Shown: in pieces, positions 9,401 through 26,913 of the stretch | Layout: every line of letters begins with the position of its first letter | How positions within the stretch are numbered: position 1 is the first letter of the stretch | IMG/VR virus record: IMGVR_UViG_3300018080_000421 | Coordinates: 1-32,431 of that record | DNA: 32,431 bases | Origin: a virus | Direction: 5' to 3' (one strand) | Program-made: the position numbers and the translations under genes | The notes under the pieces: model-generated | Database searches by the model: none | Told to the model about the DNA's origin: nothing | Seen by the model: the letters and a program-made list of their open reading frames with translations, nothing else

Positions 9401-9936
9401 ACGGCGAAGAGCCGGAAGATTACAGCGCCGCTGATGAGGTCGCTGGGATTGAGCACCAATTCGGTGAATCTCAATACAAGAAGCCATCTAAGGGTATCAA
9501 GCCGATTGGCTACAAGAAGTCATCGATCAACGAGAAGGAATCCAAGGGGAAGGGATCGAGTGAAGTGGCTAACGAGGATATTGCGGTGCTGCTCTCAACT
9601 GACGACAACATCGACGAGATCATAAATTCGGTTGTCACCGCAATGAGAGATGACGAAGGCGGTAGCGATCTTGATATCGCGACCATGGCCTCCGACACTC
9701 CCGGTGAAACGCCTGATATGGGCGATGTAGCCGGTGACATCGGTGGAGACATCGGTGGAGACATCGGTGGAGACATCGGTGGAGACATCGGTGGAGACAT
9801 CGGTGGAGACATCGGTGGCGAGATCGGTGGAGAGATCGGTGGAGAGATCGGTGGAGAGATCGGTGGAGAAGAGGAAGCCGAAGAGGAAGCCGAAGAGGAA
9901 GAAACCGAGGGGGCCGAAGAAGAAACTGAGGAGTAA
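6436..9936 (+). CDS. Giant acidic/Gly-rich prohead-core candidate (1166 aa)
   Basis: The start at 6436 has an AGGAG site 8-12 nt upstream; an upstream TTG at 6406 is rejected. It lies between portal and prohead protease, where T4 encodes small core proteins, so a head-core role is inferred. Residues 1 to ~430 look folded and helical. A Gly-rich, then Glu-rich low-complexity stretch follows (nt ~7760-7980), then another folded piece, a Gly/Lys linker with four imperfect ~30-residue repeats (nt 8293-8640), a basic stretch, a zinc-knuckle pair CSFC...CPHC (nt ~9127-9190), a DIA-type tag (nt 9571-9621) and a C-terminal GDIG/GEIG repeat with a poly-Glu tail. Such composition fits an internal scaffold that is degraded on maturation. 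No enzyme motif was seen. Confidence 0.8.
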   Translation: MAGTDQNTSPASLTMDARKFLRAINTSAQAKIVFYEDAVKKMAKQAGRDYRLTVLDVNSLIFEDIEDSRYYHADVGKKGRKVQISNIRPIKIVDEQKSESFDTHCLSLVECLAGDDFKGAEKSFRTIEVQRFRGSVIPESGWITAKDGSAHRIVVESDKDTFNIPAITEAFCEAVTDFVELDDNGKLIRGEFPETGEKFAIPIDEMTRRRLVAGHLKSVAEAAWRSDTFRKLVENVAGRVSVGSKDSIKEAIQLSAKFLTEHQEFCMLNTEEMGALVDNALASVGQFNSILSEDVATLMQRTNLRVNAADICESWGKTALKAENAELLHSAKMLESSETFTEDYDRFLGRIFNEGLDVQTARAKAYLTTLKVIGNILAKVEGKEDLSAQVENMVAELEEPQPSTDIIMEAEQLLCSIPDTLVDRIVNLENYTEMTGLESAMVDEGPEGPEGAAVGLPPGPGGGGGGGGLGGGLGGGMEGLEGLGEGAGEGAGEGAPPEEGEEEEETEEEEEVALPESKKRGAAVIESMTVAQLQEELDHWKTDGHIYLAEDGFDDCNRQFSRYIRRCEELDAATIKEEFGKLRDVMIETGDDVIDDEFVSDDPYAGMDVGDGAEINEEYGAKMGGPKGKGVAAKSGSEPGAAGKGGPASGDAKMGKPKGSGVPSKGVGQAKFSGGGSGVKMDGQGGSGVQKKGLGDAGLPHQNEDDPDAGKPKTGSAQMDRPEGSSVAESAGAPEKVQPGTGKQYKGGGWVDKLDEKLAAELKSGDQGDDLSKTKHKAQKGGVAEGKLPPALEKFKKKKKGEEGEEETKEGRPSVFVHRKEDSDKEQKEKRRSARTKTENVATILAPFIEGREFTAKTIAEAILKLKEAAKSDNSLRESLALVENYYQSGPGMDRLKCSFCDKLSPGEPEDPCPHCDGQGRLMELGSLSLTPEVGGVDPMVQSVLERISDSTGVDYTDLNMELKADPIEFVEKYADEIDIEERSALVAHGEEPEDYSAADEVAGIEHQFGESQYKKPSKGIKPIGYKKSSINEKESKGKGSSEVANEDIAVLLSTDDNIDEIINSVVTAMRDDEGGSDLDIATMASDTPGETPDMGDVAGDIGGDIGGDIGGDIGGDIGGDIGGDIGGEIGGEIGGEIGGEIGGEEEAEEEAEEEETEGAEEETEE
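8293..8640 (+). repeat. Four imperfect ~30-residue repeats inside the giant core protein
   Basis: The translated sequence repeats a pattern near A/V-K/Q-M-G/D followed by a Gly/Pro/Lys stretch ending GSGV or similar. Copies start near 8293 (AKMGGPKGKGV), 8386 (AKMGKPKGSGV), 8467 (VKMDGQGGSGV) and 8581 (AQMDRPEGSSV). The spacing varies between roughly 80 and 115 nt, so these are diverged repeats rather than a recent tandem expansion. They are probably disordered linkers or repeated short binding motifs. Confidence 0.6.
9733..9864 (+). repeat. 12-bp tandem repeat, 11 units, encoding (GDIG)7(GEIG)4
   Basis: Eleven consecutive in-frame 12-bp units encode Gly-Asp-Ile-Gly seven times (9733-9816) and Gly-Glu-Ile-Gly four times (9817-9864). 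The units are almost identical at DNA level (mostly GGAGACATCGGT, then GGAGAGATCGGT), which points to recent expansion by slippage or unequal recombination. The block runs straight into a Glu-rich tail. Because units are multiples of three, copy-number change would keep the frame. Confidence 0.97.
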
Positions 9937-9938
9937 AA

Positions 9939-10658
9939 ATGGCTGAGTGCAAACAATGCGAAGGCGGGTGCGTCAGCCGCTCGGTTGCAGCAAAGACCGG
10001 CAATATCGGTTGCCACACTTTTCTGCAAGACACAACACCTCTTAAGCTCATCAATGCTCCTATTACTGAGAGCCGAAAAGGGATTGGCGTGGTAATGAAG
10101 CTGGGCGGTCAGTTCCAATATGCTGACCGTCCAAACGCCAATGGCAGAATATATCCTCACGAGATTCTTGAGGGTGCTGTCAAGGAAATCCAAGACGACC
10201 TGAAGTCTCGTAGAGTGATGGGAGAATTCGACCATCCGCCCGACGCCAAGATTCATCTCGACAGAGTTTCACACCTTCTGACCAAATTGTGGATGGAAAG
10301 CGAGGTTGTGTACGGCGAGATGGAAATCCTAGAGAAGACCCCGATGGGTGCGATCGCTAAAGCCCTTATTGAGAGCAAGGTTCAGCTCGGCATTTCGTCT
10401 CGTGGCGTCGGAGACATGGAGACTACCATCCACGAAGGCAACGAATTCTACAAAGTGCTTCCTGGGTTTACTTTTGTAACATTCGACATCGTCGCTGAAC
10501 CCAGTGTTCAGAATTCTTATCTTTCCATCAGGGAAAGCCGTGATAGACTCCTTAAGGCTCTAAAACATACTGCGCCAAAGAATATGAGAGCCATCGCCGA
10601 ACAGAAGATCATCGATAACTTCGAGGCGCTTCTACTAGGGAAATATTATGTACAATAA
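9939..10658 (+). CDS. Prohead maturation protease (T4 gp21-like, peptidase S21-type)
   Basis: It would cleave scaffold and capsid proteins inside the prohead before DNA packaging. The product is 239 residues. It has NGRIYP (68-73), GEFDHP with catalytic His99, the TPMG segment (134-137), and GISSRGVG with the nucleophile Ser near 153/154, all in the order seen in gp21-type proteases. The start follows a GAG-rich site two bases after the previous stop. An oddity is the N-terminus, CKQCEGGC...C, a possible metal-binding knuckle not expected in this family. Its 3' end overlaps the next gene by 11 nt. Confidence 0.92.
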   Translation: MAECKQCEGGCVSRSVAAKTGNIGCHTFLQDTTPLKLINAPITESRKGIGVVMKLGGQFQYADRPNANGRIYPHEILEGAVKEIQDDLKSRRVMGEFDHPPDAKIHLDRVSHLLTKLWMESEVVYGEMEILEKTPMGAIAKALIESKVQLGISSRGVGDMETTIHEGNEFYKVLPGFTFVTFDIVAEPSVQNSYLSIRESRDRLLKALKHTAPKNMRAIAEQKIIDNFEALLLGKYYVQ

Positions 10659-10884
10659 AAAGTGCGAATCATGTGGAAACATTTGCCCAGCTCCAATGGC
10701 GGATGGCGATGACTACGAATATAAAGGACAGACATATGACCTAACAATATGTCCTGCTTGTGATAGGCAGTATAGTTGGAAGGCATATGATGAGGCAGCT
10801 GAAAAAAGAAGAATTGCCATGAATGGCAGGATGCATGAAGATATTAATGAGATCGCCGAAATGATCTCCGAGGAACCAATTTAA
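10648..10884 (+). CDS. Small zinc-ribbon protein ending in the DIA-type tag
   Basis: This is a 78-residue protein with two Cys pairs, CESC (near the N-terminus) and CPAC (about residue 37), consistent with a zinc ribbon. It ends in DINEIAEMISEEPI, one of the copies of the recurring tag. The start lies inside the protease gene (11-nt overlap) and the stop overlaps the next start by 1 nt, so all three are translationally linked. Its role is unknown. Being wedged between protease and scaffold genes and carrying the tag, it is probably a minor prohead component. Confidence 0.85.
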   Translation: MYNKKCESCGNICPAPMADGDDYEYKGQTYDLTICPACDRQYSWKAYDEAAEKRRIAMNGRMHEDINEIAEMISEEPI

Positions 10885-25869: not shown

Positions 25870-25909
25870 TGTTGTCGGGAAAATATGTTTTATTTGTATT
25901 GGGAGCGTT

Positions 25910-26818
25910 ATGATACTATTCAAAACATTGGTTGGATCTAAAGCCTTTGGTACCCATACAGAGGGTAGCGATTCGGATTTCGCGTCTGTTGTAATGCCTC
26001 CGATCGATGGGATGCTTGGGCTTGGGTATAAAGAAACTATCGTCTCCACCTCTGAGACGGAAGACAATACCACCCACACTTTCCAAAAATTTATTGAGCT
26101 TGCTGCCAAGGCCAATCCAAGCATTCTCGATATTCTGTTTTCTTCGCCGGAGCATTGGGTAGAATTCAAGCCTTTGTGGTTTCGTCTCTACGATAGAAGG
26201 CACATTTTCTTGTCAAAAATTGTTGCTGATACCTATGTTGGCTACGCTAGATCTCAGCTTAAGAGGATTAGAACGCATAGGGAATGGTTGCTTAATCCGC
26301 CAAAAGAGAAGCCCAGTAGAGAAAGTTTCGGTCTCCCGGGCCATAGCACGATCCCCAAAGAGCACAGAGAGGCTGTGATTTCAATTCCTCAAAAATATCT
26401 AGCACCAGAAATACAAGATCTTGCGAGGGCCGAAAAAGGATTTGAAATGGCAATGCGTGGTTGGACACAATATGAGAATTGGAAGAAAACTAGAAATCCG
26501 GATCGCGCTGAGCTAGAGGCCAAATATGGATATGATACAAAACATGCGATGCATATGTATCGTCTCTTGAGGCAAGGAAAGGAAATTCTCGCAACTGGTG
26601 ATCTTACTGTGGATAGGCGCAATATTGATGCGGATAGACTGAAGGAAGTACGCCAGGGGGCGCTTACTTATGATGATCTCATGGTCGAAGTGGCCACTAT
26701 GAGAGAAGAGATCGAAACAGCAAAAAGAGAGTCTAAACTTTCAGATAGGCCTGACCGTAGTGTTATCAATGCGCTGTGCGTTGAAATTATGAAGGAATAT
26801 TTAGAAACATTTAGTTGA
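25910..26818 (+). CDS. Nucleotidyltransferase (pol-beta superfamily)
   Basis: The 302-residue product begins ILFKTLVGSKAFGTHTEGSD then SDFASVV, the G-S...D-x-D pattern of the minimal nucleotidyltransferase fold (Gly9-Ser10, Asp21, Asp23). The following helices (DILFSSPEHWVEF and the Tyr-rich middle with AMHMYRLLRQG) match the large phage and bacterial family often annotated as nucleotidyltransferase or RNA-repair related. It would transfer a nucleotide to an unknown acceptor. A GGGAG site precedes the start. It is divergent from the decarboxylase gene. Confidence 0.85.
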   Translation: MILFKTLVGSKAFGTHTEGSDSDFASVVMPPIDGMLGLGYKETIVSTSETEDNTTHTFQKFIELAAKANPSILDILFSSPEHWVEFKPLWFRLYDRRHIFLSKIVADTYVGYARSQLKRIRTHREWLLNPPKEKPSRESFGLPGHSTIPKEHREAVISIPQKYLAPEIQDLARAEKGFEMAMRGWTQYENWKKTRNPDRAELEAKYGYDTKHAMHMYRLLRQGKEILATGDLTVDRRNIDADRLKEVRQGALTYDDLMVEVATMREEIETAKRESKLSDRPDRSVINALCVEIMKEYLETFS

Positions 26819-26877
26819 TATCGCGAAGCGTGGTTTTGATAAATGGAGCTTCCGGAAGGAGCCTGGAAAATGAACGG

Positions 26878-26913
26878 CTACTCAATTATTTGAGCTATAT
26901 CTTTAGGATCCAT
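26878..26913 (-). pseudogene. Remnant tagged start (11 codons) on the minus strand
   Basis: From ATG at 26913 the minus frame reads MDPKDIAQIIE and stops. It is preceded by the same promoter-like box and A-rich leader as the tagged gene at 20117, and the first seven residues match the tag. With no protein after it, it looks like a gene start that lost its body, or a very short expressed peptide. Confidence 0.5.

What the first reader, a model, noticed from the sequence alone, without database searches (positions are those of the whole stretch)
9571..26913. A short peptide tag (D-I-A-x-x-I-S/T-E-D/E-P) recurs in head proteins and tiny tagged ORFs; candidate capsid-targeting and cleavage signal
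Seen: NEDIAVLLSTDDNID (9571, giant core protein), DINEIAEMISEEPI (10840, C-terminus), DINTIASMVSDDPNI (11076), DITKIASEMPE (13165, scaffold C-terminus), DEDIARIARMID (16866), MNPEDIARMITEDP (17116), MEPKDIAKRITEDP (20117, minus) and MDPKDIAQIIE (26913, minus). Known: T4 internal proteins share an N-terminal capsid-targeting sequence cut by gp21 after I/L-x-E. Here the tag often includes I-T-E/D or I-S-E/E, a gp21-type protease is encoded, and the tag is N-terminal in the small ORFs. Inference: it is this phage's own targeting/maturation tag, unrelated in sequence to T4's.
Basis: partly seen in the sequence, partly recalled or inferred. Interest (0 to 1): 0.85.

Follow-up and report, generated by a model that had tools for sequence, protein, structure and literature searches.

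The report
Phage head-loading tags copying scaffold tail
A group of uncultured T4-like viruses of bacteria appears to put one of two short N-terminal address labels on many unrelated proteins; the label studied here resembles the tail end of the virus's own head-building scaffold and usually ends at a predicted protease site, so these proteins are probably loaded into the virus head and injected into the host.

Summary
In the window, 17116(+), 20117(-) and 11076(+) are certain matches. The scaffold C-terminus (13165) is supported by homologues, 26913(-) is a decayed copy, 10840 is plausible, and 9571 and 16866 are rejected.

In related uncultured contigs the tag (consensus DIAxLITEDPD[VI]hxE) sits at the N-terminus of unrelated proteins: about 18 in one 395-kb contig, 11 in another. 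Cargo includes polynucleotide kinase-like, NUDIX, AAA+ and peptidase proteins. Contigs holding the head-gene block encode a T4 gp21-type protease and gp23 capsid protein. All 32 scaffolds end in a tag-like IAxxh peptide. A second N-terminal tag, MKLxxLxE, resembles T4's capsid-targeting sequence. Homologous cargo carries one tag or the other (78% identical in one pair).

Best explanation: cleavable capsid-targeting leaders. The DIA tag mimics the scaffold tail, draws cargo into the prohead core, and is cut off by the gp21-type protease. It works like T4's capsid-targeting sequence but is unrelated to it in sequence. The window's tiny tagged ORFs look like remnants, not cargo. Packaging and cleavage are inferred; I found no virion data.

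The parts
17104..17256 (+). Upstream element CAAAAATAGCCT (17104-17115) and tag ORF MNPEDIARMITEDP... (17116-17256); certain tag, cargo lost, read as a remnant
19950..20129 (-). Upstream element (20118-20129) and tag ORF MEPKDIAKRITEDPDVLLEGWEELGIED... (20117 down to 19950); certain tag, abuts an N6_N4_Mtase fragment on the other strand; read as a remnant
26878..26925 (-). Upstream element (26914-26925) and decayed tag MDPKDIAQIIE* (26913 down to 26878)
10884..12290 (+). Head-block ORF: DUF3008 N-terminus followed by internal tag DINTIASMVSDDPNI (11076-11120)
10648..10884 (+). 78-aa ORF with tag-like C-terminus DINEIAEMISEEPI (10840-10881); plausible only
   Evidence: 0.25 expected per window; no homologue found
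12373..13200 (+). Scaffold in the gp22 position: coiled coil, disordered linker with h-x-E site RTLIE (about 13111-13125), C-terminal tag-like helix DITKIASEMPE (13165-13197)
   Evidence: no Pfam or PHROG hit and no match in the phages collection, so homology to T4 gp22 is not shown
9939..10658 (+). gp21-type prohead protease (Peptidase_S77)
13216..14778 (+). Major capsid protein (Gp23); predicted cut after NLLLE, codons at 13438-13452, before DATTTG

Best explanation
The tag is a cleavable N-terminal capsid-targeting leader. Its core (D-I-A-x-x-h-T-E-D-P-D) imitates the short C-terminal helix that ends the gp22-position scaffold (I-A-x-x-h-D/E-D/E). Tagged cargo therefore joins the prohead core by the contact that the scaffold tail uses. 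The gp21-type protease then cuts after the h-x-E that closes the leader (or after I-T-E), as it is expected to cut the capsid protein, and the freed cargo stays in the head and is ejected into the host. A second leader, M-K-L-x-x-L-x-E, does the same job and is interchangeable with it. Shown by sequence: N-terminal position on unrelated cargo, the h-x-E end, the scaffold-tail likeness, leader swapping, and (in one contig with significance) a shared upstream element. Inferred: binding partner, packaging, cleavage and injection.
For: Profile search: 18 tag matches in G015, 11 in G006, 9 in G004, nearly all N-terminal (48 of 57 regex hits in called genes within 40 residues of the start). De novo search: the tag is the top shared N-terminal pattern in G015, G006 and G004 (11, 10, 8 genes; 2-4 elsewhere). 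Cellular genomes: 24 pattern hits, none N-terminal. Cargo is heterologous. E at Pro+5 in 75%. S77 and Gp23 present in contigs with the head block. Scaffolds: IA in the last 16 residues of 32/32 against 6.9% of other genes, invariant in 30 aligned; cargo-only matrix ranks the scaffold tail first in 12 loci; tail is a short helix after a disordered linker. MKL leader: E at position 8 in 30% against 6%, p=4e-20. Leader swapping: 78% identical cargo in G051 (DIA) and G058 (MKL); NUDIX 36%. Synonymous codon diversity. T4 precedent: 10-19-residue leaders, L/I-x-E cuts, IPs co-purify with gp22 (PMC9026906).
Against: No virion, cleavage or binding data. About a quarter of tags lack E at Pro+5. The scaffold-tail ranking is poor in several lineages, including G015 (rank 223 of 1630), and loci are related, so counts are not independent. 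G004, G006, G051 and G054 carry tags but no S77 match; they may be fragments. Pro at P2' of I-T-E|D-P may hinder cutting there.
Confidence: 0.78

Rival explanations
1. The tag is a capsid-targeting leader, but the likeness to the scaffold tail is coincidental; it binds another core part (portal, protease, DUF3008 protein) rather than the partner of the scaffold tail.
For: Cargo tags carry TEDPD, most scaffold tails D-E-D; the match is short and the ranking poor in some lineages.
Against: IA is invariant at the scaffold C-terminus and in 32/32 tails, with the same spacing to the hydrophobic and acidic residues.
Confidence: 0.2
2. The tag is an intracellular address for something else, such as a replication compartment or a host partner, not the head.
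For: Many tagged proteins are enzymes of unknown role; no virion data.
Against: Likeness to the scaffold tail, h-x-E end, tags inside head-block proteins, swapping with a T4-like leader.
Confidence: 0.1
3. The conserved stretch is a nucleic-acid signal (translation start or recombination site), and the peptide has no role.
For: A conserved 12-nt element lies directly before many tagged starts.
Against: Tag codons vary synonymously; the tag also occurs inside head proteins and resembles scaffold tails.
Confidence: 0.03
4. Chance recurrence of a short pattern.
For: Two of the eight reported sites (9571, 16866) are at chance level or not conserved.
Against: Three sites have no chance hits in shuffled windows, and relatives show genome-wide N-terminal enrichment.
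Confidence: 0.01

Closest known systems
T4 capsid-targeting sequence (CTS) of internal proteins IPI/IPII/IPIII, and Alt, with gp21 protease (PMC9026906, PMC3012670)
   Same: Short N-terminal leader on unrelated cargo, h-x-E at its end, gp21-type (S77) protease, gp23 capsid and the same order of head genes; T4 IPs co-purify with the scaffold gp22. The second tag here (MKLxxLxE) resembles the T4 leader MKTYQEFIAEA.
   Different: The DIA tag has no sequence match in T4; it resembles the scaffold C-terminus; many more tagged genes per genome; two leader types alternate on homologous cargo; some copies sit inside head proteins or at C-termini.
N-terminal propeptides of giant phages phiKZ, 201phi2-1 and SPN3US cut after x-x-E (PMC9026906, PMC10052503)
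   Same: Head proteins with N-terminal propeptides removed by a gp21-related protease after Glu.
   Different: Those propeptides are mostly long (111-254 residues in SPN3US, two of 20-24) and the passages read describe no shared short leader on many cargos.
Encapsulin cargo-loading peptides (own knowledge)
   Same: A short terminal peptide directs varied cargo into an HK97-fold shell.
   Different: Encapsulin peptides are usually C-terminal, not cleaved, and bind the shell; no homology tested.

Membership tests
T4-type capsid-targeting sequence | Short N-terminal leader shared by otherwise unrelated proteins | tested here: met
   (DIA and MKL)
T4-type capsid-targeting sequence | Leader ends in an L/I-x-E type site | tested here: met
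   DIA: E at Pro+5 in 75%, preceded two residues earlier mostly by F, L, I or V; MKL: L/I at 6 and E at 8. Site present, cutting not shown
T4-type capsid-targeting sequence | Sequence similarity to the T4 leader | tested here: not met
   DIA tag: no match in T4. The MKL tag resembles MKTYQEFIAEA by eye only
T4-type capsid-targeting sequence | Phage encodes gp21-type protease and gp23 in a T4-like head block | tested here: met
   Window and contigs with the head block; T4 gene order. G004, G006, G051 and G054 show no S77 match and may be fragments
T4-type capsid-targeting sequence | Tagged proteins are in the virion and are cut at the leader | not testable with these tools
   No proteomics for this clade found
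gp21 protease (Peptidase_S77) | Match above the Pfam gathering cut-off | tested here: met
   Window 9939-10658: 72.8 bits against 27
gp22-type scaffold | Position between protease and capsid genes, coiled-coil build, h-x-E sites | tested here: met
gp22-type scaffold | Sequence homology to known gp22 | tested here: inconclusive
   No Pfam, PHROG or phages-collection match

The most novel reading that the evidence does not exclude
A clade of uncultured T4-like, often jumbo, phages uses a modular loading code. Two interchangeable N-terminal leaders, one copying the scaffold tail and one resembling T4's leader, in part under a common promoter-like upstream element, recruit dozens of different effectors into the head for injection. 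The effector set of such a phage could then be read from sequence by its leaders.
Probability: 0.55. Interest if true: 0.9.

Novelty: new variant of a known kind. Interest (0 to 1): 0.82.

Why it matters
Which phage proteins enter the cell with the DNA is known for few phages. A leader readable from sequence would list candidate injected effectors (about 18 DIA-tagged ORFs in one contig), many of unknown function and candidates for counter-defence. The scaffold-tail likeness suggests a concrete, testable answer to how a leader gets cargo into a prohead. In T4 the leaders target proteins into the core and IPs co-purify with gp22 (PMC9026906), but the contact itself was not described in the passages I read. 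It would also be a second, sequence-unrelated loading tag for packaging proteins in phage heads.

Tried and rejected
Tag at 9571 (giant core protein): orthologues L034 and L035 do not keep it. Tag at 16866: not above chance. Functional tiny ORFs in the window: no similarity beyond the tag and its short extension. Tag in cultured phages: consensus tblastn against 50,697 phage records gave one weak, partial hit (E=9); T4 and RaK2 have no match, and RaK2 shows no such N-terminal leader de novo. Scaffold homologues in named phages: none. Cellular carriers: 24 pattern hits, all internal. Literature for the tag string: none found in the held library. ART-like cargo against PDB: no significant match, so that assignment is weak (Pfam PARP E=6e-4, below cut-off). 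RNA-level explanation: disfavoured by codon diversity. Repeated N- and C-terminal patterns in G035 look like a duplicated gene family rather than a tag (not followed further). One search also printed one set of scores for my hand-typed, shifted strings; those numbers are out of register and were not used.

Full report
What is there. The window is a 32,431-base viral fragment with a T4-type head block: terminase with intein, portal, a giant core protein, S77 protease, two further ORFs, a scaffold in the gp22 position, and a gp23 capsid protein. T4 has the order 20-67-68-21-22-23. The window's capsid protein is 84% identical to that of the 395-kb contig G015.

Checking the observation. I built a position matrix from 44 tags of other contigs and scanned the window. 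20117(-) and 17116(+) score far above anything in 20 Markov windows, and 11076(+) also has no chance hit. 10840 is marginal. 9571 is marginal and not kept in orthologues. 16866 is not above chance. The scaffold C-terminus (13165) gains support only through its homologues. 26913(-) is a damaged copy: it shares the element CAAAAATANNNT directly before ATG with the other two tag ORFs (4 such sites in the window, 0.0 expected). The two longer tiny ORFs lose similarity after the tag and its short extension, so I read all three as remnants of tagged genes; that step is inference.

The tag in relatives. DNA patterns of the tag in IMG/VR find contigs in which it is N-terminal on many different ORFs. 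A profile search finds 18 matches in G015, 11 in G006 and 9 in G004. An unbiased search for patterns shared by the first 60 residues of genes gives the tag as the top result in these three contigs (11, 10 and 8 genes), while internal and C-terminal segments give 2-4. A closely similar DNA pattern in 257 billion bases of cellular genomes gives 24 hits, none N-terminal. Consensus: I 95%, A 100%, x, L 61%, I 82%, T 98%, E 68%/D 32%, D 100%, P 100%, D 95%, V/I 100%, x, x, E 75%; D, P and T/S were partly required by the way tags were found, so their percentages are upper bounds, while E at Pro+5 was not required by the search patterns. Codons vary synonymously, so the peptide is what is conserved.

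Cargo. Tagged proteins include a polynucleotide-kinase-like P-loop protein (PDB 1ly1 E=1e-5), NUDIX (E=9e-18), AAA+ (E=4e-16) and a peptidase C39/AstE fusion, a cyclic-phosphate-processing receiver domain (E=3e-19) and a weak ADP-ribosyltransferase-like protein, and a weak M78 peptidase. Most have no family. T4's Alt is an ADP-ribosyltransferase packaged with the IPs (PMC9026906).

Protease site. T4 gp21 cuts after L/I-x-E (PMC9026906). Here 30 of 31 capsid proteins carry [LIF]-x-E before the conserved TTT stretch that follows the expected cut, two of them as ITE. Tags end with E five residues after the Pro in about three quarters of cases, mostly with a hydrophobic residue two before it, and most contain I-T-E|D as well. 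Where cutting happens is not shown.

Scaffold tail. Closed scaffold homologues end in a tag-like peptide, for example GINDIAEMVDEDLV*, MIDKIASEMTED*, DITKIASEMPE*. Two of the nine invariant columns in 30 scaffolds are this I and A. IA occurs in the last 16 residues of 32/32 scaffolds and 6.9% of other genes. A matrix from cargo tags alone ranks the scaffold first among the ORF C-termini of 12 loci, but poorly in some lineages including G015. Upstream lies a low-confidence linker, with an h-x-E site in 30 of 32, and the tail is predicted as a short helix, itself at low confidence. The loci are related, so these counts are not independent.

A second leader. De novo search in G009 and G026 gave MKLRxIxE. 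Across 16 contigs, 189 genes begin M[KR][LI]; E is at position 8 in 30% against 6% in internal controls (p=4e-20) and L/I at position 6 in 53% against 14%, other positions being close to control. T4's leader is MKTYQEFIAEA. Homologous cargo carries either leader: G051 (DIA) and G058 (MKL) are 78% identical over 114 residues after the leaders; NUDIX of G015 (DIA) and G058 (MKL) 36%; in G004 one family of small proteins has members with MKL, with DIA, or with none (that profile was built from G004 members).

Upstream element. CAAA[AC]NTANNN[CT] directly before the start is enriched at tagged genes of G015 (10 of 21 against 18 of 604, p=1.5e-9), and occurs before some MKL genes and some untagged genes. 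It resembles the T4 late promoter TATAAATA (own knowledge). That it is a promoter is inference, and in most other contigs the enrichment is not significant.

Interpretation. The simplest account is a cleavable capsid-targeting leader, functionally like T4's, with the DIA form imitating the scaffold tail. Membership in the T4 CTS family by descent is not shown for DIA (no match in T4). No cultured phage with the DIA tag was found. Packaging, cleavage and injection need experiments.

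Noticed in passing
window 17104-17115(+), 20118-20129(-), 26914-26925(-), 28976-28987(+); G015 35 sites: Element CAAA[AC]NTANNN[CT] directly before start codons, T4-late-promoter-like; with so little room before ATG, transcripts might be nearly leaderless.
   Followed up: partly
window 28330-28971 and 20615-20968; G004 0.4-9.4 kb and elsewhere: Family of small proteins ending in a DPxSFxKIxxFI-like stretch, over 20 members in G004, some with MKL or DIA leaders, others without.
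   Followed up: partly
window 30229-30858: Weak second S77-like match (12.7 bits, below cut-off) in an ORF that ends in a DP-S-like stretch; G058 also has a second, sub-threshold S77 match.
   Followed up: no
window 2360-4669: Large terminase interrupted by an intein (Intein_splicing E=4e-13, about residues 66-203).
   Followed up: no
window 14895-16745: LAGLIDADG endonuclease domain with a C-terminal part that looks like a methyltransferase, right after the capsid gene; related ORFs in G035, G056, G022 and others.
   Followed up: no
G015:123937-124068, G006:8616-8768, G004:80959-81039: Short ORFs (164-193 aa) matching only the N-terminal part of Gp23 (the G004 match is weak); role unknown.
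   Followed up: no
G054, G009:14074, G022:12628: Repeated stretch SDYDGLEDADEF or similar in several small proteins, some after an MKL leader.
   Followed up: no
T4 gp22 N-terminus (L200) and IPII/IPIII (L201): T4 gp22 begins MLKEQLIAEA, which looks like the leader MKTYQEFIAEA; T4's leader might copy its scaffold's N-terminus. Not tested statistically.
   Followed up: no
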